From NCBI GenBank assembly GCA_030538235.1, contig JAUNUJ010000005.1:1-64000 (forward strand): a DNA stretch of 64,000 nt, given 5' to 3'. Positions 11,892 to 22,367 of this stretch are shown here, in pieces; within the stretch, counting starts at the first letter, position 1, and every line of letters starts with the position of its first letter. The position numbers were made by a program, and so were the translations under genes. The DNA comes from Alcaligenaceae bacterium (GTDB lineage Bacteria; Pseudomonadota; Gammaproteobacteria; Burkholderiales; Burkholderiaceae_B). The notes beneath the pieces are model-generated. The model ran no database searches, was not told where the DNA came from, and saw only the letters and a list, made by a program, of their open reading frames with translations.

Positions 11892-12002
11892 GGTCTTTTT
11901 ATTGAGTAAAAAGCAATTATAAGCCGTCAGTTCTTAGGGAGTGGTTTCTGATGGGGGCGTGCTGTTTTTTTATAACTATGATTTGTAATTTTCTTGTCAT
12001 CT

Positions 12003-12791
12003 ATGGTGGCTAAGATTGAAAGTTCTGAGTTTCATTTCGTGGCTATGGAATATTTAATAAGTTTATTGATTTTTGTCGTCAGTCGTTGGTGGTTGTTTTT
12101 GCCACTGGTATTAGGCGTGTTTTACGTGCTGTATCATTTTCACTTGGTTTCGACTAAGAGTTATGGAGGGCTACTTACTGTATTTGTAATTTGTGCACTC
12201 GTATCAATTTTTTCTCGGATGATATTTGCTCCGGTGATTAACTATTACGGTAAGTTAGCTGTGGGTGAAGTCACTGCTTCAAGAGCAACGATGTTTTCGG
12301 ATGCCAGTTACGACACTGTATATTCAGTAAAGGCGACTTTTGAAGCAGAAGATGGTAGCAAAAAAAAGCTGAGTTATTGGGATAGCGTTCATCGAGTTTA
12401 TCCGGTATTTAAAGGCTATGGTATTCCCACGAGTGAAAAAAGCTTGTTTGTTTTGAAATACTTACCCTTGATGCACAGTGAGTTTGTTTTTATAGCCAAG
12501 TTTTCGGATAAAGATAAAAGGGACTTTTGTCCTTTGCTCAAAGACAAATTAAGCGAATTACAGGCAAAAAGTGAACTTTTGTCTATAGAAACAACTGAGT
12601 TTAATCAAGTTTTTTTTCATAACATGCCGATAGATGAACAAATGGCGTTGCAACGTAAAATTCGCCGAGGTAAAAACTTGACGGAAGCTGAACAAAGGAA
12701 AAAAGAACTTGATGAGCAAACTCATCGCGTTTTTAGAGAGATTGGTTTTCTAAAAATGACTGTGGAAAGTAGTGATTATTGTGATGAGTGA
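12003..12791 (+). CDS. Hypothetical membrane protein, DUF3592-like
   Basis: I do not recognise this protein with certainty. Two hydrophobic segments lie near the N-terminus (about residues 15-45 and 50-70), then a soluble region of about 190 residues. The middle (VYSVKATFEAEDGSKKKLSY to FVLKYLPLMHSEFVF) resembles DUF3592-type proteins, where a beta-rich domain ends in a V-x-YLP motif. The C-terminal third is charged and probably helical. No good ribosome-binding site marks the start: TTG 11994, ATG 12003 and ATG 12045 are all possible. AT-rich like the following T6SS genes and separated from vgrG by 504 nt. Its position suggests, but does not show, a role with that cassette. Confidence 0.65.
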   Translation: MVAKIESSEFHFVAMEYLISLLIFVVSRWWLFLPLVLGVFYVLYHFHLVSTKSYGGLLTVFVICALVSIFSRMIFAPVINYYGKLAVGEVTASRATMFSDASYDTVYSVKATFEAEDGSKKKLSYWDSVHRVYPVFKGYGIPTSEKSLFVLKYLPLMHSEFVFIAKFSDKDKRDFCPLLKDKLSELQAKSELLSIETTEFNQVFFHNMPIDEQMALQRKIRRGKNLTEAEQRKKELDEQTHRVFREIGFLKMTVESSDYCDE

Positions 12792-13295
12792 TAAGGCGAT
12801 TTGTTGAGGGGTTTTGTTGTGAGTTTTATTTATTAGCCTGCGTATTTCATTTGTCTCTTAGCGCTCGTATGCTTTTAGTGAAATATAAAACTCGCCTTCA
12901 TGCTGTCATAATTTTGTAATCATCTCGTCATTTTAAGTCAGTAGTATCAAAGGTTGTGGCTTTTATCTGTCACGACTTGGAACGTTAGGAAACTCTAAAA
13001 GCTTGTATCGTTTGCCTTACAGATTATTGTTGTTTACGTCGTCTGAAATTCTAAACTTATGAAAAGTAATTGATGTCGAATTCTGAGTCATATCTTTACT
13101 GGCACTCGCTCGGTCTGTAGATGAATAATGTGTTTTTTGTTAATGAGTGAAATTAGCTTTAGTCTTAAAAGCGTTTTTCTGATGAGAAAAATCACAGGGA
13201 CACGTGGTGCTATCCATTTGCTTGATAGTTAAATCGCGAAAAGTTAAATGAGTTTAAAAGTATCAGGAATAAATTTTTAATTAAAGGTATTAGGT
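12792..13295. other. 504-nt AT-rich non-coding leader upstream of vgrG
   Basis: No frame of convincing coding character on either strand and no repeats that I can see. It probably holds the vgrG promoter. The vgrG start is preceded by AAAGG and TAGG close to the ATG at 13296. Confidence 0.5.
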
Positions 13296-15731
13296 ATGGA
13301 TTTTCTGAATTTGCCATCAACTGATCGTCCCATTGTGGCTCACACAGCACTTGGTCCTCAGCTTGGTTTTTTAAGCCTAAAGGGTAATGAGGGGATTTCT
13401 GAGTTGTTCGAGTTTGATGTTGAGTTGGCTTCAGGCACCTTTATGTTGGATGTGCGCTCAATGTTAGGCACTGATTTGACAATTGAGATTGAAACCTCAG
13501 CGGGCGCGCCACGTTTCTTAAATGGTAAGGTAAGTGATTTTGAGTTGCTTGGGCGTGAGCGAACCAACTCCGGTTATTACTTATACCGAGCAGTTGTTCG
13601 TCCTGCTTTATGGTATTTGACTCAAGGCCAAGATAGTCGAATTTTCCAAAATAAAAATGTCCCCGCTATCTTGAAGAAAGTATTTGATCGTTATGGTTTT
13701 TCGGTTGAGTATAAGTTAAATGAAACTTACCGTGATTGGGAATACTGTGTGCAATATCAAGAATCTGATTTTAACTTTGTTAGCCGCTTGATGGAACACG
13801 AGGGGATTTATTACTACTTTTCTCATGATAATGGGCAGCACACCTTGATTTTGACCGATGATGTAATAACTCATCAAACTTTTCCGGGCTATGATGTGTT
13901 TACATATTACGATAGTCAGGGCAATATCGCTGCCGCTAGTGAGAGTGTTCTTAGCTGGCGACACCGTGCGGGTATGACCGCAGCTAAATATTCAGTGCTA
14001 GATTATGATTTCCGCAAACCGCAGGTTAAATTGGATGCATTGACTGCTGAGTCTTTGTCTGGTGATGATCCCAAAATAGAAATGTACGAATGGCAGGGTG
14101 GTTATCAAGAGCTAGACCACGCTGATCAGTATGCTCGTCTGCGCATGCAAGAGCTCAAGGTAAACCAAGAGCTCATTACTGCTGAGACCACAGTAAGAGG
14201 TGTCGCCCCTGGCTATTTGTTTACCTTACATAATCACCCACGCTTGGTAGAAAATCAAGAATACTTGGTAGTGAGTGCTGTTTATAAGATGTCCGTTGCC
14301 GGTTACTCAAGTGGCACAGATCGTCAGGATAGTTTCCAGGTTCTTTTGAATGCGATTCCTTCAAGTGTCCAATTTAGAGCGCCAAGAATCACTAAGCAAC
14401 CGAAAACCTCCGGTCCCCAGACTGCTAAGGTAGTGGGACCAACTGGCGAAGAGCTTTATACTGACAAGTTTGGTCGAATTAAAGCGCAATTCCATTGGGA
14501 TCGTGAGGGCAAGAGTGACGAAAATAGTTCTTGTTGGATTCGCGTATCCAGTCCATGGGCAGGTGGTGGCTTTGGCGGATTACAGCTGCCTCGTATCGGT
14601 GATGAGGTCGTAGTCGATTTTATCGGCGGCAACCCAGACCGCCCCATTGTTTTAGGTCGTGTGTATAACGCCAGCAATATGCCACCGGTTGATTTGCCGG
14701 TTGATGCCAATATTAGTGGTTTTAGAACACAGTCAGTTTTTGGGGATTCAAGCACTGAAAACCATTTATTGTTTATTGATAAATTGGGCCAAGAACTTGT
14801 TGATTTACGTGCCCAATACGACATGATCGTCAATGTACTCAACAATCTTGACATTATTGTAGGCAATAATCGAACCGAAAGTATTGGAGTAAACCTGAAA
14901 ACCACTGTTGGTGCAACTGAAGAGCGTGAAGTAGGGAGCGATCGAACGACAACAATCAACGGTTTGGAGACTGGCAACTTTAATGCGAGTCGCATTGAGA
15001 TAGTGACAGGTACACAAAACGTTGAGGTGACAGAAGATGACACTTTCATTGTAGGTGGTAGCCAGATTACTGATATTGGTGTCGATCATACTGAGACGAT
15101 AGGTGGGAACGATACGATTAATGTGACGGGAGCGCGCGAGGAGACGGTAACGGCAGGTGTGACTGAGACTTATGACACTCAGTATACGCAGACAATTAAT
15201 GGGCCGACCACACGTACCATTACAGGTCCCGTTATAGACACTATAACGGGAACTCATATCGATACAACAACTGGAGTAGTCATAAAAACGATAACAGGTC
15301 CTTTAATCGATGTGGTTAATGGATCTAGTTTGCGTTCTTATGAGGGTCCGATTATAGATAATTTAGAGGCATCATGGAATGTAACTGCGGCTGGAAATAT
15401 TACGTTTAAAGCCCCGAAAGTCAAGTTGGATGTTCCTTCTACGTTGTTTGAGAAGTTAAATATCAATCATAGATTTGGTGTTTATACGGGCTCTACGTTT
15501 GCATTTAAGACAGAGCAAACAGGCAAGGCGCATGCCATTGCCTTGTCTAAAAGTGACTGGGCTATTAAGAAAGAAGGTAAAGCTTTTATGTCCCGTTATG
15601 ACGATGCTATTAAACATCAGAAAAATATTCTCCAAGCACATAAAGCAATGATGAAACGAGACATACGGGCACTTAAAAACTCAAAAAACGGATTAGAGCT
15701 TGTTAAAAATGGTTTGAAAATTTTGGCGTAG
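13296..15731 (+). CDS. vgrG: Type VI secretion spike protein VgrG
   Basis: Trimeric spike that caps the Hcp tube of a T6SS. The N-terminal gp27-like region (about 1-365) has LFEFDVEL and VSRLMEHEGIYYYFSH. A gp5-type OB domain follows (about 372-470, with DKFGRIKAQFHWDREGK, SSPWAGGGFGG and GDEVVVDFIGGNPDRP). Next comes a beta-helix needle of repeated TGxxIDTITG-like units (about 520-700). The last ~105 residues are a lysine-rich, probably helical tail with no family I recognise and no toxin motif. 811 residues is longer than a plain VgrG (~600-700). Immediately followed by PAAR-like, DUF2169, pentapeptide and DUF3540 genes on the same strand. Confidence 0.96.
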   Translation: MDFLNLPSTDRPIVAHTALGPQLGFLSLKGNEGISELFEFDVELASGTFMLDVRSMLGTDLTIEIETSAGAPRFLNGKVSDFELLGRERTNSGYYLYRAVVRPALWYLTQGQDSRIFQNKNVPAILKKVFDRYGFSVEYKLNETYRDWEYCVQYQESDFNFVSRLMEHEGIYYYFSHDNGQHTLILTDDVITHQTFPGYDVFTYYDSQGNIAAASESVLSWRHRAGMTAAKYSVLDYDFRKPQVKLDALTAESLSGDDPKIEMYEWQGGYQELDHADQYARLRMQELKVNQELITAETTVRGVAPGYLFTLHNHPRLVENQEYLVVSAVYKMSVAGYSSGTDRQDSFQVLLNAIPSSVQFRAPRITKQPKTSGPQTAKVVGPTGEELYTDKFGRIKAQFHWDREGKSDENSSCWIRVSSPWAGGGFGGLQLPRIGDEVVVDFIGGNPDRPIVLGRVYNASNMPPVDLPVDANISGFRTQSVFGDSSTENHLLFIDKLGQELVDLRAQYDMIVNVLNNLDIIVGNNRTESIGVNLKTTVGATEEREVGSDRTTTINGLETGNFNASRIEIVTGTQNVEVTEDDTFIVGGSQITDIGVDHTETIGGNDTINVTGAREETVTAGVTETYDTQYTQTINGPTTRTITGPVIDTITGTHIDTTTGVVIKTITGPLIDVVNGSSLRSYEGPIIDNLEASWNVTAAGNITFKAPKVKLDVPSTLFEKLNINHRFGVYTGSTFAFKTEQTGKAHAIALSKSDWAIKKEGKAFMSRYDDAIKHQKNILQAHKAMMKRDIRALKNSKNGLELVKNGLKILA

Positions 15732-15766
15732 TATCTCATAAAAAAACTTTAAAGGTAAATATTGTT

Positions 15767-16150
15767 ATGTTTTCATGTTGTCAAGTTGGCGGTATTAGTG
15801 CCGGATTTCCTGATGTTTGTAAGACCCCTATTCCGCCCATACCGCATCCTAATGTGGGTATGGCTTTGATGACTGTGCCTATCCCTATTCAAGTGCTGAC
15901 TATTGGTGGTCCTAAGCACAATATGGCTAGTAAGAAGCCCATTACTTTGGCTGATACGGCCGGAGTGGGTGGAGGACTCATTTCACAACGCTTTGCAGCT
16001 AAGCATAGAGCTTTGTCAGGTGCTTTTACTTACATTTGCAAAGGAACACCCACCACTCGAGTCACTAGCTTTGGTATTACCAATAGTATGAATTGCCCAG
16101 ATATTGAGGCGTTTACTGTAAATTTTAAAGAATTAGTGCTTTGTGCATAG
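15767..16150 (+). CDS. PAAR-like protein (DUF4150)
   Basis: Small spike-tip protein that sharpens VgrG and usually carries or recruits an effector. The DUF4150 signature is clear: FPDVCKTPIPPIPHPNVGMA at about residues 14-33, then a glycine-rich segment (DTAGVGGGLISQ) and several Cys/His residues (C4, C5, C18, H27, a Cys near the end) that could hold zinc. At 127 residues it is only the PAAR-like domain, with no C-terminal toxin, unlike many DUF4150 effectors. It starts 35 nt after vgrG, so it is in the same operon. Confidence 0.85.
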   Translation: MFSCCQVGGISAGFPDVCKTPIPPIPHPNVGMALMTVPIPIQVLTIGGPKHNMASKKPITLADTAGVGGGLISQRFAAKHRALSGAFTYICKGTPTTRVTSFGITNSMNCPDIEAFTVNFKELVLCA

Positions 16151-16241
16151 CAAATCGAAATTACTCAGGTGATTGAGTGATGTTCCTTTCTATGGAGTTG
16201 GAGTGATTTCAATGCGAGTTTTTATTGGTGGTTTTTAGGGT

Positions 16242-19082
16242 ATGAGAGTAGTTAAGCCTTTAACTCAAAGTTTACTTCATCGAAAGTTTGATTATGATAA
16301 AAAAAGTTATGTATCTGTAGTTAGTGCTGTTCTTTTTGATTTTAAAACTCAAAAGCTCTGTTCGGAACAAGCGCTATGGAAGCATTTTGCTGAAGAGTGC
16401 TTAGCCCAATTTGACGTTGAAGTTCTTGATCTGATAGGTAAAAAGAAAACACCAGAGATAATAGTAAACGGCTATGCGTATGGTAAGTATGCTAAAGAGG
16501 GTAAAACTACCATTCAACTTAAACTTAATAATGTTTCTAAATGCTTAGATGTTTGGGGTGATCGTTATTGGATCGATGGCAAACCCTCTGTAGCTCAAAA
16601 GTTTGAGCGAGTTGCTATCAATTGGCAGAATGCTTATGGTGGGCTTGGGTATGACAAAAACCCTAAAGGTAAGGGACGAGACTACGTAGAAGTCGAAAAG
16701 TTAAAAGAAAAGCTGAAGTTAGTGCCTAACATTGAAAGCCCAACCAATCCAGTCTTAGTTGAAAGTGATGAGTACGAGCCTGTTACTTTTACAACATTAC
16801 CGATAGAGTACCCAGAGCGTAATAAGCTGATGGGCAGTTATGATGAGAAGTGGAGGCAGGAAGAGTTTCCTGGTTTGGCTAAAGATATTGATTGGGCATA
16901 TTTTAATCAGTCACCGATAGACCAACGCTTATCACAGCTTAAATCGGGGGATGAGGCGCTTTTTATTAATATGCATCCCGATAAGGCAGAACTGACCATG
17001 ACTATTCCTCCCATTGCGGCAAGAGCCTTTATTCGTTTAGTTAGAGATAGGGATAAAAAAGAAGATTTTTTGAAGCCGATTGATTTAAGTCTGACTAGTT
17101 TATGGGCATTTCCTCACTTAGAACAAGCTTTTTTAGTTTATGAAGGTGTATTTGAAATAGAGCGCTGGTTTTTTGTTGATGACATCGTATCAGAGTTAAT
17201 GGGGGCGATAGAGCATATAGACAGTCCTAAATCATTGAGTTATTACGAAGAGGTGTTTACATTACGAACTGATGAAAAATTATCTATGCATTATGCCTCT
17301 TTGGATACGCAGCTAGTCGATAAAAGATTTCTGTCTAGACCAGAGCGTATCCCTATCAGTGCTGCTTTAAAACACAAAATGAAGCGATTAGCGGGTGATC
17401 TGAAGTCCTTAGAAAAAAAGCATTTAATTGATAGATGTAAATATGGAGAGTTAAATCGAGAAGACCCCAGTCTTGCTATTGATGAGGATGAGCTGGATTA
17501 CGAGTCTTTACTAACAGAAGTGTTTGGTGATGGCGTTCAGTCGTTAGATGATATTTCTAAATGGCTAGATGTTGGGGTAGATATTGAAAAAGAAAATCAA
17601 AAGTTATTAGAAGAGGAGTTAAGAGAAAAGCCTTTTTGTCATCAAATGAGGGAGTTCAAACAAGAGTTAAAACAAGTGTCAGGAAAGCTAGAAAACGAGT
17701 CTTATCAGGTAACGAGAGAAGAATACATCAAAGCGCAATTAGAACATGAAAACTTCGTTAAAGAAGCCCGTTCCGATTCTAGTCAAAGTCTTAATGACCC
17801 AAATAGAGCATCACCAATACCTGAGGCAGCCCAAGAAAATAAGGAAATGCTAAAACAGCTAGACGGTTATGCACCTGAAGAGTTTGTGGCGTTTCAAAAC
17901 AATGGTTCGCTTCTTCCACCGAGAAAGTTTAATTTAATAGGCGATACTGATAGTGGCAATGAAGAAGCCGCCTCGGAATACTATGAAATATTTAATGAGA
18001 GTAATCGCAAAAAAAATAGTCTTATTGAGAAGGCAAGGTCTGATATTTTGAGTGCCCCTGCCGATTTTTTTGTCAACAAGGAAAAAGCTCAAGATTTTGA
18101 AATAGTATCTTTAGATTTTTTCCTTGGGGAGTCTGATAGTTTATTTAGTGGTTGTCGTTTTATTTTAAACACGAAAATAACGAATGATGAGTCCTACCAA
18201 GGAGCCAAAATTTATGACTTATTAGTGCTGGGCTGTCATTTTATTAATTGTGATTTTACTGAAGCACAATTAAGCGGAGTCGAATTTAAGCAGTGTACTT
18301 TCGAAAGATGTCAATTCGTAGGGACAGAGTTTGAACAAAGCTTTTTTGAAAATTGTGAGTTTGTTGGCTGTGAGCTTAAAGCAATTGAGTTTGATAAAAC
18401 AGCATTTAAATCAGTTGTGTTTCAAGTGTGTGCTATCGATTTATGCAGTTTTGATGTTTGCACAGTGACGCAAGTTGTTTTTCAAAACTCAACACTAGAT
18501 ATGACTGATTTTATACGTACTAGATTGTGGGCAGTTGAGTGGAACGCTTGTGTAATCAAACAGTTTGGTTTGACACTGGGGGTGCTTAATGACGTGCGAT
18601 TTAATCAAACAGAGATTGAGTCAATGTCAATTGTTGTCAATTCGTTGATAAAGCAACTTTATTTTATTAAAAGTCAATTATCTAAGATCTTCATAAAAGC
18701 ATCGACAAGGATTCAGGATCTTGTCATAGAGCAGAGTTCAGATAAAGAGTCTTCTTGGCGTGAATTATTTATTGAGAAGGCTTCTATTCACAAATCTCGG
18801 ATGGAAAATAATGATTTTTCTAAATCCTCATTTTTACATTCAACGTTTAAGGATGCTTCTTTTAAGGATTCTTTATGGATGAGTTCGATTGTAACCCAAG
18901 TGATGCTAGAAAATGTTGATTATGCTGAGGCAGTATTGATGGGATTCAGATCGGTAGATAGTTATTTTAAACATGTTTCATTTTTTGCGGCTGAACTTTC
19001 TTATATTGATATTGATCATCAAAGCGTATTTGATGATTGTTATCTTGAAAGAGCAAATACTATACCAAGCTTGAGGGGATAA
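16242..19082 (+). CDS. DUF2169 T6SS adaptor fused to pentapeptide repeats
   Basis: The N-terminal ~325 residues match DUF2169, an adaptor/chaperone family that loads PAAR-type effectors onto VgrG. The conserved DWAYFNQSPIDQRLSQL and GDEALFINMHPDK are at about 220-245. A charged, predicted helical linker with a coiled-coil tendency follows (about 330-600). From about 624 to 930 there are pentapeptide-like repeats (for example FKQCTF, CQFVGTEF, CEFVGCEL) that should form a right-handed quadrilateral beta-helix. At 946 residues it is much longer than stand-alone DUF2169 proteins. AT-rich codon use contrasts with the flanking housekeeping genes. Two nt separate its stop from the next pentapeptide gene. 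Confidence 0.85.
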   Translation: MRVVKPLTQSLLHRKFDYDKKSYVSVVSAVLFDFKTQKLCSEQALWKHFAEECLAQFDVEVLDLIGKKKTPEIIVNGYAYGKYAKEGKTTIQLKLNNVSKCLDVWGDRYWIDGKPSVAQKFERVAINWQNAYGGLGYDKNPKGKGRDYVEVEKLKEKLKLVPNIESPTNPVLVESDEYEPVTFTTLPIEYPERNKLMGSYDEKWRQEEFPGLAKDIDWAYFNQSPIDQRLSQLKSGDEALFINMHPDKAELTMTIPPIAARAFIRLVRDRDKKEDFLKPIDLSLTSLWAFPHLEQAFLVYEGVFEIERWFFVDDIVSELMGAIEHIDSPKSLSYYEEVFTLRTDEKLSMHYASLDTQLVDKRFLSRPERIPISAALKHKMKRLAGDLKSLEKKHLIDRCKYGELNREDPSLAIDEDELDYESLLTEVFGDGVQSLDDISKWLDVGVDIEKENQKLLEEELREKPFCHQMREFKQELKQVSGKLENESYQVTREEYIKAQLEHENFVKEARSDSSQSLNDPNRASPIPEAAQENKEMLKQLDGYAPEEFVAFQNNGSLLPPRKFNLIGDTDSGNEEAASEYYEIFNESNRKKNSLIEKARSDILSAPADFFVNKEKAQDFEIVSLDFFLGESDSLFSGCRFILNTKITNDESYQGAKIYDLLVLGCHFINCDFTEAQLSGVEFKQCTFERCQFVGTEFEQSFFENCEFVGCELKAIEFDKTAFKSVVFQVCAIDLCSFDVCTVTQVVFQNSTLDMTDFIRTRLWAVEWNACVIKQFGLTLGVLNDVRFNQTEIESMSIVVNSLIKQLYFIKSQLSKIFIKASTRIQDLVIEQSSDKESSWRELFIEKASIHKSRMENNDFSKSSFLHSTFKDASFKDSLWMSSIVTQVMLENVDYAEAVLMGFRSVDSYFKHVSFFAAELSYIDIDHQSVFDDCYLERANTIPSLRG

Positions 19083-19084
19083 GA

Positions 19085-20212
19085 ATGTTATCGAGCGAAG
19101 AGACAAGCAAGTTAATCGATAAACATATTATTGCTCCCATAGTTAACGGTGACAACCTTGAAAATCTTCATATTAAATCTTTGCTTTGGGAAAATAAGCA
19201 TATTTCAGGTGGTGAGTTTATAGAATGCATTTTTGAGAGTATTCACTTTAAAAGCGTCCACTTTGAGGAATGCTCTTTTGATGAGTGTGTTTTTATCGAT
19301 TGTACTTGGGAAGACAGTTTTTGGACTGAGGTGGGTTTTACTTTCAGTCGTTTGAAACATTGTACATTCAGAAGCTCTAAATTAGTTGATGTGGACTTTA
19401 CCGTTTGCGCCCTTGTTGATGGGTTATTCGAAAAGTGTTCAATTGATACGATGGATTTTATGGACTGTCAGGAGTTTTCAGTGAAGGTAGTCGAATGTCA
19501 TTTAGAGACATCGAGTATTTTAGGTTTATCGGAAAGCGACAAAAAAGGTTACCCAAAGCATCCTATGCATGAGTTTGAAAGTCCATATCATTATTTTGAA
19601 ACTGAAAATTGCACCTCTAGACATTTGGTTTTATTTAAATACGATTTTAATCATTGGGTTATTAAAAATTGTCAGCATAGAAACTTGATTGCATTGTGGA
19701 GTGAGGCTGCTGCCTACGATTTTAGCAATACCGACTTAACGATGAGTCAATTTACTGAGTCAAATCTAGCAGGTGCTAATTTTGCTAATTCTAAAGTTGA
19801 TCAATGTAGCTTTATTGGTTGTGATTTAAATGGCGCTAACTTTACTTCTGCTTCACTCAACTATGCTTTACTACTGAAAACGCAACTTGTCAATTCAAGT
19901 TTTCAAGGTGCTCAAATGTTTGGTGCTAATATGAGCGAATCCAATGCGAGACGATCCGATTTTAGTCATGCTTATTTGGAAATGGCAAACATGTCCAAGG
20001 GAGTTTTTACGGACTGTAACTTTCACAGTGCCACCATGAGATATACCGACTTCAGTTATGCGGATATTAGCAAGGCAGATTTTACTAAAGGCAGCTTTTA
20101 TTATTCAAGACATCAATCCACGGTCGATACTCAGACAAAATACAGTAATAAGTCCGGCATTATGGATGAAGATCCTCAACAGTTGAAGGCAGATTTATGG
20201 TTAGAAAGTTAA
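19085..20212 (+). CDS. Pentapeptide-repeat protein of the T6SS cassette
   Basis: 375-residue protein made almost wholly of A(D/N)LXX-type pentapeptide repeats in two blocks. The first (about 45-135) is Cys/Phe-rich (CSFDECVF, CTFRSSKLVDVDF). The second (about 215-345) is canonical (SNLAGANFANSK, CDLNGANFTSA, FGANMSESNARRSDF). A non-repeat insert separates them (about 135-215). No enzyme motif. Genes of this type accompany DUF2169 and DUF3540 in VgrG cassettes; their function is not established. The start is 2 nt after the DUF2169 gene and the stop overlaps the DUF3540 gene by 16 nt, indicating translational coupling. Confidence 0.85.
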   Translation: MLSSEETSKLIDKHIIAPIVNGDNLENLHIKSLLWENKHISGGEFIECIFESIHFKSVHFEECSFDECVFIDCTWEDSFWTEVGFTFSRLKHCTFRSSKLVDVDFTVCALVDGLFEKCSIDTMDFMDCQEFSVKVVECHLETSSILGLSESDKKGYPKHPMHEFESPYHYFETENCTSRHLVLFKYDFNHWVIKNCQHRNLIALWSEAAAYDFSNTDLTMSQFTESNLAGANFANSKVDQCSFIGCDLNGANFTSASLNYALLLKTQLVNSSFQGAQMFGANMSESNARRSDFSHAYLEMANMSKGVFTDCNFHSATMRYTDFSYADISKADFTKGSFYYSRHQSTVDTQTKYSNKSGIMDEDPQQLKADLWLES

Positions 20213-20937
20213 ATGCACAGAGTTTAGAAGTTGACAATATAGCTTGTCAACAAGAGCCGAGAGAGCGAGCTATTACAAGTGAGCTAGTTGCGTTGTTGCG
20301 TAAACAAAGAGCTGAAGAGCTTACAGTGACAGCTTCGGTGGTTTCATGTAAAGCAAAGATAAATGCACGTTCTGATGGTCCAAATGATTTTTTGGTTGAA
20401 GAGGTTCAGACTAATCAGCTTTTTACGGTGAAACTGGCAACCTCTTGCTTACAAATTCCTCGTGAAGGGGATATTGTCCATATTCAAGTTTTCTCTGATG
20501 ACTCTGCTTATATCATGGCTATTTTAGAGTCGAATCAATGTGTTGATGAGGTCGTCACGTTGAAGCTGCCTGATAACACATTATTTGAAGCAAAAGGACT
20601 GTCTTTTGACACAGAGGAGTTTAAGCTGTCCACCAAAAAAGTCTTTATCGATAGTCAGACAACCTCTATTAACTCTATCTCCTATCGACAGACGGGCTTA
20701 AATATCAATTTCGACGCTGTTCAAATTAGCCAAGCGGCTAAAAGGATAGAAGTCATCGCAGAAAAAGCAACGACGCGGGTGATGAATTCAGATAAGTTGG
20801 TAAGCGGTATGGATAGGGTTAGAGCTTTAAATGTCAATTATTCAGCAGAGGCAGTGGCTAAGCTGTCGGGTAATGTGACCATGATTAATGGTCATGAGTT
20901 ATTGAAGTCTGACGGTAAATTAATGGTTGTTGGCTGA
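20197..20937 (+). CDS. DUF3540 protein of the T6SS cassette
   Basis: 246 residues. A short N-terminal helix (ELVALLRKQRAEE) is followed by a beta-rich OB-like segment (about 45-115, EDIVHIQVF-type strands) and a repeated beta C-terminus. The arrangement matches DUF3540, found next to VgrG, DUF4150 and DUF2169. It may be a small spike-associated or loading factor, but no function is proven. Overlaps the pentapeptide gene by 16 nt and is the last gene before the hairpin at 21051. Confidence 0.8.
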   Translation: MVRKLNAQSLEVDNIACQQEPRERAITSELVALLRKQRAEELTVTASVVSCKAKINARSDGPNDFLVEEVQTNQLFTVKLATSCLQIPREGDIVHIQVFSDDSAYIMAILESNQCVDEVVTLKLPDNTLFEAKGLSFDTEEFKLSTKKVFIDSQTTSINSISYRQTGLNINFDAVQISQAAKRIEVIAEKATTRVMNSDKLVSGMDRVRALNVNYSAEAVAKLSGNVTMINGHELLKSDGKLMVVG

Positions 20938-21050
20938 TTTCTTTAGTCGGCTAAGCCATGTCGTAGTGGGTTGAGTGATTAAATACTCTTTGAGTATGCT
21001 AGCGATGAAAATTTTAGAGTATATCGTTACCGTTTTTGTTTGTGTTGAGA

Positions 21051-21574
<524 letters not shown>

Positions 21575-21731
21575 AGGGGGCGGAACGCGAGCTAGTGCTT
21601 GTTGATGGCGGTGGTGTCGGCGCGTTTTTAAGTAAAATAATATCCTCACAGCGCAAGAAAATTGGTCTTATTTTTGATAGACTACTCATTAATAACAGAC
21701 TTTCCAAGACCCTCGATTTTCCGGAGATTTT

Positions 21732-22367
21732 ATGGCTATTCATGAAGTTAAGCATCCTTTAGTTCAACACAAACTTGGCCTGATGCGCGAAATTAATTTA
21801 AGTACAAAGAGTTTTCGTGAATTAGCGGGCGAGGTTACTACCTTGTTGACCTATGAAGCGACTAAAGACTTTGCTTTAGAGGAAACTGAGGTTCAGGGGT
21901 GGTGTGGTCCGGTCAAAGTGCAGAAAATCAGCGGTAAAAAGGTGACGGTGGTGCCTATTTTACGTGCCGGTATTGGTATGTTAGACGGGGTTTTGAGCCT
22001 GATCCCCGGTGCAAAAGTCAGTGCCGTAGGAATTGCTCGCGATGAAAAAACATTCGAAGCAGCGACGTATTTGAAAAAACTGGTTGAGGATTTAGATCAA
22101 CGTTTAGCAATTATTATTGATCCGATGTTAGCAACAGGCGGCTCGATGCTAGCAACGATTGATATGTTAAAGCAAGCCGGTTGTAAAGATATTCGCGCCT
22201 TAGTTTTAACTGCTGCTCCGGCGGGAATTGAGGCGGTGCTTTCTAAGCATCCTGATGTGCATATTTATACCGCCTCTATTGATGATGGTTTAGACTCAAA
22301 CAATTATATTTTGCCAGGTTTGGGTGATGCCGGTGACCGGATTTTCGGTACTCGCCAAAAGGATTAA
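21732..22367 (+). CDS. upp: Uracil phosphoribosyltransferase
   Basis: Pyrimidine salvage: uracil + PRPP to UMP. 211 residues, the standard length. PRTase features include [15 protein letters not shown], the flexible loop region [14 protein letters not shown], the PRPP loop [20 protein letters not shown] (about 128-147) and the uracil-binding C-terminus [24 protein letters not shown] motif precedes the ATG. It marks the return to core sequence after the accessory block. Confidence 0.97.

What the first reader, a model, noticed from the sequence alone, without database searches (positions are those of the whole stretch)
13296..20937. T6SS spike cassette with loaders but no recognisable toxin
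VgrG, a stand-alone DUF4150 PAAR-like tip, DUF2169, a pentapeptide protein and DUF3540 are on one strand, tightly spaced or overlapping. In comparable cassettes a toxin (PAAR C-terminus or a following gene) and an immunity gene are expected; here none is seen. Either the cargo is one of the accessory proteins, is encoded elsewhere, or was lost when the IS21 element inserted at 21103. The cassette may define a non-canonical cargo.
Basis: partly seen in the sequence, partly recalled or inferred. Interest (0 to 1): 0.7.

Follow-up and report, generated by a model that had tools for sequence, protein, structure and literature searches.

The report
Type VI spike cassette with hidden immunity
A bacterial 'spear tip' gene set that seemed to carry no weapon is a recently described kind of toxin-less spike, and it sits beside a membrane protein of a family that travels with such spikes and is probably the owner's shield against its own spear.

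Summary
The five genes are real and correctly placed. They are the full set of a Class III Tvp ('synteny type C') type VI spike cassette, described in 2025-26: VgrG, stand-alone DUF4150 tip, DUF2169-pentapeptide fusion (TvpAB), pentapeptide protein (TvpB), DUF3540 (TvpC). A tip without a toxin domain is normal for that class, so loaders without cargo are not the anomaly.

A 265-residue membrane protein 504 bases upstream of vgrG (11994-12791) belongs to a fast-evolving DUF3592-like family ('M'). M genes lie in 53 of 60 related cassettes fetched; of the 7 without, six end in a VgrG-Rhs fusion and one is cut by contig ends. Of 268 genomes of the bacterial family, 62 have M and 62 the matching TvpAB, 60 in common, 204 neither. 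M genes duplicate, occur as orphans, and often occupy the slot where Serratia keeps its immunity gene vai1.

Most likely VgrG itself carries the toxic activity and M is its immunity protein. This is inference: no bench test, and no structure could be predicted. The IS21 remnant sits where eight relatives carry DUF4150 plus M, so that end is probably eroded.

The parts
11994..12791 (+). M265: 265-aa membrane protein (two hydrophobic segments, then a DUF3592-like region and a charged C-terminal extension); proposed immunity protein
   Evidence: ORF, hydrophobic segments; no Pfam hit at E 0.01 and no NCBIfam hit; homologues in 5 of 268 family genomes, its own included, at single-sequence level; member of family M
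13296..15731 (+). vgrG, 811 aa: gp27/gp5-like hub, long beta-prism, C-terminal extension
   Evidence: the matched stretch to solved VgrG structures ends at residue 630
15651..15728 (+). last 26 residues of VgrG: cationic (net +5), amphipathic tail; proposed toxic element
   Evidence: hydrophobic moment of last 18 residues 0.52, but mean hydrophobicity -0.18, the lowest of 44 tails
15767..16150 (+). DUF4150 (PAAR-like/PIPY) spike tip, 127 aa, no extra domain
   Evidence: domain residues 10-111 of 127; motif reads PIPH
16242..19082 (+). TvpAB: DUF2169 plus pentapeptide domain, 946 aa
   Evidence: the TvpAB profile A4 matches the DUF2169 structure 8vth
19085..20212 (+). TvpB: pentapeptide protein, 375 aa
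20197..20937 (+). TvpC: DUF3540, 246 aa
21051..21080 (+). hairpin after TvpC with a weak T-run; possible end of transcript
   Evidence: -19.9 kcal/mol over 71 nt, z -2.93; not reported by the terminator scan
21103..21537 (+). IS21-family remnant: 3' half of istB

Best explanation
This is a Class III Tvp type VI spike cassette in an Oligella-type bacterium, carrying a VgrG-intrinsic antibacterial activity and a linked membrane immunity protein. Assembly, inferred from the published Serratia system: TvpAB and TvpB chaperone the small hydrophobic DUF4150 tip on a TvpC trimer that mimics a short VgrG. VgrG then replaces TvpC, the loaded spike joins the baseplate and is fired. No separate toxin is needed: the long VgrG, probably through its C-terminal tail once inside a target cell, harms the inner membrane. 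M265, a membrane protein encoded 504 bases upstream, protects the producer and its kin. Shown here: gene set, class membership, M-cassette association, fast divergence and duplication of M. Inferred: the assembly steps, toxicity of VgrG, immunity function of M.
For: (1) All Class III parts present; PMC13373197 and PMC11883445 describe the same set. (2) M genes in 53 of 60 main-clade cassettes; the 7 without are six VgrG-Rhs cassettes (Rhs confirmed) and one contig-truncated locus. (3) Genome-wide: M in 62 of 268 genomes, matching TvpAB in 62, both in 60, neither in 204; 74 of 99 M matches lie within 8 kb of a TvpAB; 0 of 26 genomes with only the divergent TvpAB clade have M. (4) Profiles not refitted found M beside DUF4150 in two loci of another family, L145 and L146, and nothing but M265 itself at E<=0.01 among 510 ORFs of the control set, 11 background loci plus the whole window. 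(5) Immunity-like habits: tandem copies, one M after each of two VgrGs in L047, a tandem array of four in O. urethralis, copies away from a cassette beside gyrB, upp, tssF-side T6SS genes and hcp. (6) In the 34 cassettes with one VgrG and one M, M diverges as fast as the VgrG tail (median identity 23% and 22%) while TvpAB is 40% and VgrG N-terminus 62%; M distance tracks tail distance beyond TvpAB distance (partial rank correlation 0.365, 0 of 499 permutations). (7) In Serratia, Vai1 in the slot between vgrG1 and tvpAB is a proven immunity protein, VgrG1 is the only partner pulled down, and no separate effector was found (PMC13373197 section 5).
Against: No toxicity or immunity shown. M is not Vai1's sequence family (no DUF3192 match). 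The window's tail is cationic but the least hydrophobic of 44. The maximal hydrophobic moment in the last 40 residues does not differ from Rhs-type or control proteins (p 0.18 and 0.24). M distance tracks the VgrG middle (partial 0.463) and N-terminus (0.387) as well as the tail, so the tail is not singled out. Membrane topology is mixed across M, so a shared periplasmic domain is not established. L148 and L149, outside the family, have class III cassettes without M. All six genomes with an M-less VgrG-Rhs cassette have M at another locus, which fits an assembly role too, and five of those six Rhs genes run to the end of the stretch held. In Serratia the isolated VgrG1 C-terminus was not specifically toxic (PMC13373197).
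Confidence: 0.55

Rival explanations
1. M is a membrane assembly or docking factor for long-prism Tvp spikes, not an immunity protein; the spike carries no toxin of its own and only helps deliver Hcp-borne effectors.
For: M is nearly always present with the main-clade cassette. All six genomes with an M-less VgrG-Rhs cassette (G000, G002, G029, G107, G109, G247) have an M gene at another locus, so M could act in trans. In Serratia the VgrG1 spike delivers Hcp-dependent effectors (PMC13373197).
Against: Tandem copies, copies away from cassettes, change of strand and position, ~23% identity, one M per VgrG in L047. No credible M was found in 16 divergent-clade or split-gene DUF2169 loci.
Confidence: 0.22
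2. Eroded cassette: the original 3' end (DUF4150 plus M, possibly more) was removed by an IS21 insertion and deletion, and the remaining genes are decaying.
For: Only half of istB remains. 8 of 8 cassettes with the order TvpAB-TvpB-TvpC-DUF4150 have M after DUF4150. The nearest relative has M176 next to upp. The DUF4150 gene in the window directly follows vgrG, a place otherwise seen with same-strand TvpAB in this set only in VgrG-Rhs cassettes.
Against: All five genes have open full-length frames and tight spacing, DUF4150 is present, an M gene is kept upstream, a hairpin follows tvpC. No trace of M or DUF4150 in 20900-21760 (best E 0.14), which neither supports nor excludes an earlier loss.
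Confidence: 0.12
3. The cargo is a separate effector encoded elsewhere and loaded onto this spike in trans.
For: Other T6SS loci exist: a Tai4-type immunity gene beside the main cluster, a VgrG-Rhs cassette on C13.
Against: Nothing found links them to this VgrG; the Rhs gene is fused to its own VgrG.
Confidence: 0.08
4. M itself is the effector: a small membrane-inserting protein carried by the spike.
For: Hydrophobic segments and strict linkage to the spike.
Against: Tandem and orphan copies without another partner would be self-toxic; it often occupies the slot of a proven immunity gene in Serratia (PMC13373197).
Confidence: 0.03

Closest known systems
Class III Tvp accessory system of Serratia marcescens Db10 (VgrG1, Vai1, TvpAB, TvpB, TvpC, Paar1; PMC13373197)
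   Same: Same five protein types; stand-alone small DUF4150; long VgrG; no separate effector; a membrane-anchored small protein linked to vgrG
   Different: Gene order (DUF4150 directly after vgrG, TvpC last); the linked membrane protein is DUF3592-like and upstream, not DUF3192 and downstream; a half istB follows
DUF2169 synteny type C (PMC11883445)
   Same: DUF2169-pentapeptide fusion, pentapeptide, DUF3540, VgrG, DUF4150
   Different: That paper's model figure expects effector and PIPY domain as separate proteins in type C; no separate effector gene is seen here
VgrG-Rhs fusion cassette on contig C13 of the same genome
   Same: Main-clade TvpAB and TvpB, DUF4150, DUF3540, VgrGs
   Different: Ends in a VgrG-Rhs fusion (canonical specialised effector) and shows no M gene in the stretch held
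DUF3592 (PF12158)
   Same: Profile-level similarity of several M members; one (L042, 154 aa) passes the Pfam cut-off
   Different: M265 itself has no Pfam match; its link is by profile chaining

Membership tests
Class III Tvp / synteny type C cassette | DUF2169 fused to a pentapeptide-repeat domain (TvpAB) | tested here: met
   DUF2169 residues 21-300, pentapeptide matches from about residue 664 on, in one 946-aa protein
Class III Tvp / synteny type C cassette | independent pentapeptide protein (TvpB) | tested here: met
   window 19085-20212
Class III Tvp / synteny type C cassette | DUF3540 TvpC | tested here: met
   61 bits against cut-off 27.9
Class III Tvp / synteny type C cassette | small DUF4150 protein without effector domain | tested here: met
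   domain covers 10-111 of 127 residues
Class III Tvp / synteny type C cassette | long VgrG (usually 700-800 aa in PMC13373197) | tested here: met
   811 aa
Class III Tvp / synteny type C cassette | TvpC pre-complex replaced by VgrG | not testable with these tools
   needs biochemistry
PIPY (DUF4150) tip | P(I/V)P(Y/F) motif | tested here: inconclusive
   window reads PIPH and has no P(I/V)P(Y/F) anywhere; of 58 cassettes with a DUF4150 gene (window included) 34 have the motif, 4 read PLPY, 20 neither (which replaces a faulty tally); the Pfam DUF4150 cut-off is met
Vai-type VgrG-associated immunity | linked to vgrG in a class III cassette | tested here: met
Vai-type VgrG-associated immunity | sequence family DUF3192 | tested here: not met
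   no DUF3192 hit in M265 at E 0.01 or in ten homologues at E 1; M is not filed as a Vai1 homologue
Vai-type VgrG-associated immunity | membrane anchor with periplasmic beta-rich body | tested here: inconclusive
   window clade has K/R-richer inter-segment loops in most of 12 rows, 33 two-segment M members show the opposite charge bias overall; structure job never started
Vai-type VgrG-associated immunity | protects against delivered VgrG | not testable with these tools
   needs competition assay
DUF3592 (PF12158) | passes Pfam gathering score | tested here: not met
   M265: no hit at E 0.01; described as DUF3592-like only

The most novel reading that the evidence does not exclude
In Alcaligenaceae-type bacteria the Class III spike is itself a polymorphic toxin. 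The VgrG prism and tail vary like toxin tips, and a previously unrecognised DUF3592-like membrane family is the cognate immunity, inherited with nearly every such spike and kept as orphans. In ten further cassettes the VgrG extension is replaced by exactly three different tail proteins, one per chain of a trimer, suggesting a heterotrimeric spike.
Probability: 0.35. Interest if true: 0.75.

Novelty: new variant of a known kind. Interest (0 to 1): 0.5.

Why it matters
The 2026 Serratia work left open what the VgrG1-associated toxin is. A second, sequence-unrelated membrane family locked to the same kind of spike in another bacterial family would argue that spikes which are themselves the weapon are common. 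It also gives a large set of natural immunity candidates to test (99 matches in 62 genomes, fragments included). It would explain why toxin searches that look for fused or following effectors miss these cassettes.

Tried and rejected
Rejected: (a) dead T6SS relic: structural genes present. (b) Pentapeptide proteins as cargo: they match TvpAB/TvpB; the Serratia counterparts were reported as never detected in secretion (PMC13373197, section 13). (c) Periplasmic topology as a general feature of M: suggested by the window clade, not borne out across the family. (d) 'Amphipathic tail' as a sharp marker: M-type tails are more hydrophobic at the end than Rhs-type or control proteins (last 12 residues, median 0.58 against 0.42 and 0.42, p 0.001 and 4e-15), but the maximal moment is not different. 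The 44 tails include L041, whose M status is unknown; 8 short VgrGs were set apart; rows are related by descent. Not excluded: a very small toxin gene in the gaps. No ORF longer than 65 aa lies in 12792-13295 or in 20938-21735 apart from the istB fragment; the short ones were not examined one by one.

Led nowhere: plasmid megablast, no match; genome-contig scan with TvpC, no relative; PDB search with M, no credible match; papers on DUF3592 with T6SS immunity or with VgrG, none in the held library.

Cautions: the M profiles were grown on the same 60 loci that one search counts, so 53 of 60 is not independent; the 60 are 20 from earlier fetches plus 40 chosen by hand over genera, not at random; L048, L056, L058 and L059, fetched earlier, were left out as divergent clade and used as controls. 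Independent checks are 21 further loci: L145 and L146 positive, 19 without a credible M, among them L147 cut short, L148 at a contig end, L149; a hit of E 0.006 in L056 is a 1181-aa ORF; profile A5, 27 rows from 22 genomes; 40 of the 62 M genomes supplied no row and 38 of those 40 have the matching TvpAB. The control set includes L089, which holds an M-type fragment seen and missed by the profiles at E 0.01. score only the best 3 and 12 candidates per genome. In 'matching TvpAB' meant listed rows of 430 bits or more plus fragment rows of G104 and G247 that I added by hand; without G104 the overlap is 59. The two TvpAB-only genomes, G006 and G022, have M-type genes (L044, L053). Some of the 25 distant M matches lie on short contigs and may belong to split cassettes. 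The Fisher value ignores descent. Of the six Rhs genes, five run to the end of the stretch held, so an M gene behind them could be missed, but one search lists none within 8 kb of those TvpAB genes.
Full report
What is there. The window is contig C4, bases 1-64000, of a 2.43-Mb genome. A genome of the same genus, G002, has contigs of the same lengths and matches as Oligella urethralis DSM 7531, so the source is an Oligella-type bacterium; the genome itself is unnamed. The five genes are confirmed by Pfam. The DUF2169 protein is a fusion with a C-terminal pentapeptide domain. Spacing is 35, 91, 2 and -16 bases, consistent with one operon.

What it is. [quoted passage not shown] In that work Class III tips carry no effector domain. 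[quoted passage not shown] The VgrG1 pathway of Serratia kills by depolarising the inner membrane, with no separate effector found; Vai1, encoded directly after vgrG1, gives immunity and pulls down only VgrG1. So a spike with loaders but no recognisable toxin is a described kind, not an anomaly.

The same genome. Three such cassettes are present: the window, one at the end of C8 (L005) and one on C13 (L006), as judged by three DUF4150 genes and three main-clade TvpAB genes (which scored the best three candidates). The C13 cassette continues into a VgrG-Rhs fusion of at least 1699 aa, a canonical specialised effector. Five VgrG hubs plus one piece at a contig end carry the GPD domain. The main T6SS cluster is on C10, hcp on C8.

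The site. In two of five relatives whose upp region was read, L068 and L072, queA and upp are direct neighbours, 110 and 52 bases apart; L069 and L071 have other genes there and L070 an M gene. In the window M265 and the cassette lie between queA and upp. The cassette therefore appears to be an insertion. TvpAB and TvpB are 36-37% GC against 44.3% for the window, VgrG is 43.1%.

The missed gene. 11994-12791 encodes a 265-aa protein with two hydrophobic segments. Single-sequence search finds it in 5 of 268 family genomes, its own included. In O. urethralis a homologue is again upstream of vgrG (L042). In Pelistega indica one M-type gene is upstream of vgrG and others follow DUF4150 (L090). In L091 one follows DUF4150 with an overlap of 11 bases. 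Profiles grown from these recruit a DUF3592-like membrane protein in 53 of 60 cassettes. The 7 without are six VgrG-Rhs cassettes (L006, L043, L046, L135, L139, L144; Rhs repeats confirmed) and L041, which is cut at both contig ends. M sits mostly between vgrG and tvpAB, otherwise after DUF4150 or upstream of vgrG; it is on the strand opposite tvpAB in L142 and opposite vgrG in L130 and L131. Reversed ORFs gave no hit with the M profile and one of E 0.016 with the related slot profile.

Independent checks. Profiles not refitted, run on 21 further loci, found M next to DUF4150 in L145 and L146 (another family). They found none in 12 loci of the divergent clade or with DUF2169 and pentapeptide in separate genes (L150-L161), none in L048, L058 and L059, only a non-credible hit in L056, and none in L147 (cut), L148 (contig end) and L149. 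In the control set of 510 ORFs (11 background loci plus the whole window) only M265 itself scored at E<=0.01. Genome-wide, profile A5 found 99 M matches in 62 of 268 genomes. Against the TvpAB matches, 60 genomes have both, 2 only M, 2 only TvpAB and 204 neither; 74 of 99 matches lie within 8 kb of a TvpAB; none of 26 genomes with only divergent TvpAB has M. Of the 25 distant M matches, 23 are in genomes that have a cassette. Limits of these counts are given under Tried and rejected.

Why immunity rather than assembly. M genes come in tandem (L005, L045, L090, L123, L127, L133). In L047 each of two VgrGs is followed by its own M while DUF4150, TvpAB and TvpB are single. Four stand in a row in O. 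urethralis (L088), others away from a cassette beside gyrB (L086), upp (L070), tssF-side T6SS genes (L087) and, in this genome, hcp. In the 34 of 60 cassettes with one full VgrG and one M they diverge as fast as the VgrG tail. All this is usual for immunity genes and unusual for assembly factors, but it is indirect. Against it, all six genomes with an M-less Rhs cassette have M elsewhere, so a role in trans is not excluded. M is not Vai1's sequence family.

Where the toxin could be. By the Serratia precedent, in VgrG. The matched stretch to solved VgrG structures ends at residue 630 of 811. The tails of 44 M-type VgrGs end more hydrophobically than those of 11 Rhs-cassette VgrGs, and the window's last 26 residues are cationic and amphipathic but the least hydrophobic of the 44. 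M distance tracks VgrG mid-region, N-terminus and tail distance, so the active part of VgrG is not located.

The IS21 remnant. Only the 3' half of istB remains, from 21103. In 8 of 8 cassettes with the order TvpAB-TvpB-TvpC-DUF4150 (L005, L042, L044, L045, L090, L091, L118, L119), M follows DUF4150, as in L145 and L146. In the nearest relative by TvpAB, G003 (53% and 41% identity over two parts), an M gene lies directly upstream of upp, but its cassette is on another contig. The window has its tip gene elsewhere, keeps an upstream M, and has probably lost a downstream one.

Verdict. Class III Tvp cassette: near certain. M as cognate immunity: likely. VgrG as the toxin: plausible, by precedent. 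Overall a known kind with an undescribed partner family, as far as the held papers show.

Noticed in passing
L045:6889-9614; also L053, L134, L136, L137, L138, L140, L141, L142, L143: In these ten cassettes (VgrG 517-653 aa in nine; in L142 no same-strand VgrG was found next to TvpAB) exactly three non-overlapping ORFs of 120 aa or more (164-359 aa) precede tvpAB, ten of ten. In L045 they are homologous to each other and to VgrG prisms; in L142 similarity is weak. Three tails for a trimer suggest a heterotrimeric spike extension.
   Followed up: partly
L088:204-2761 (O. urethralis) and L086:890-1660, L070:6366-6896, L087:400-891: M genes away from a cassette: four in tandem at a contig start, one between gyrB and a gamma-glutamyltranspeptidase gene, one beside upp at a contig end, one beside tssF-side T6SS genes.
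   Followed up: partly
L092:8656-9129 (G000:C8:61652-62152): An orphan M gene directly downstream of one of two hcp genes in the window's own genome.
   Followed up: no
L006:18412 onward and L073 (G000:C13): VgrG-Rhs fusion of at least 1699 aa running to the contig end; the homologue L046 ends in an AHH nuclease domain.
   Followed up: partly
L007:12367-14782: Tai4-type immunity gene (235 aa), an unidentified 331-aa gene and a nuclease-domain gene beside the main T6SS cluster.
   Followed up: no
L103:11452-11796 and L005:14991-15983: Contigs C2 and C8 each end inside a vgrG; they may be the two halves of one cassette with several vgrG copies, as in L044. Not joined.
   Followed up: no
L090:4327-7158: TvpAB of Pelistega indica is broken into several frames while the neighbouring cassette genes look intact.
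   Followed up: no
window 11892-21731: The cassette lies between queA and upp, which are direct neighbours in two of five relatives read (L068, L072): an apparent insertion site.
   Followed up: partly
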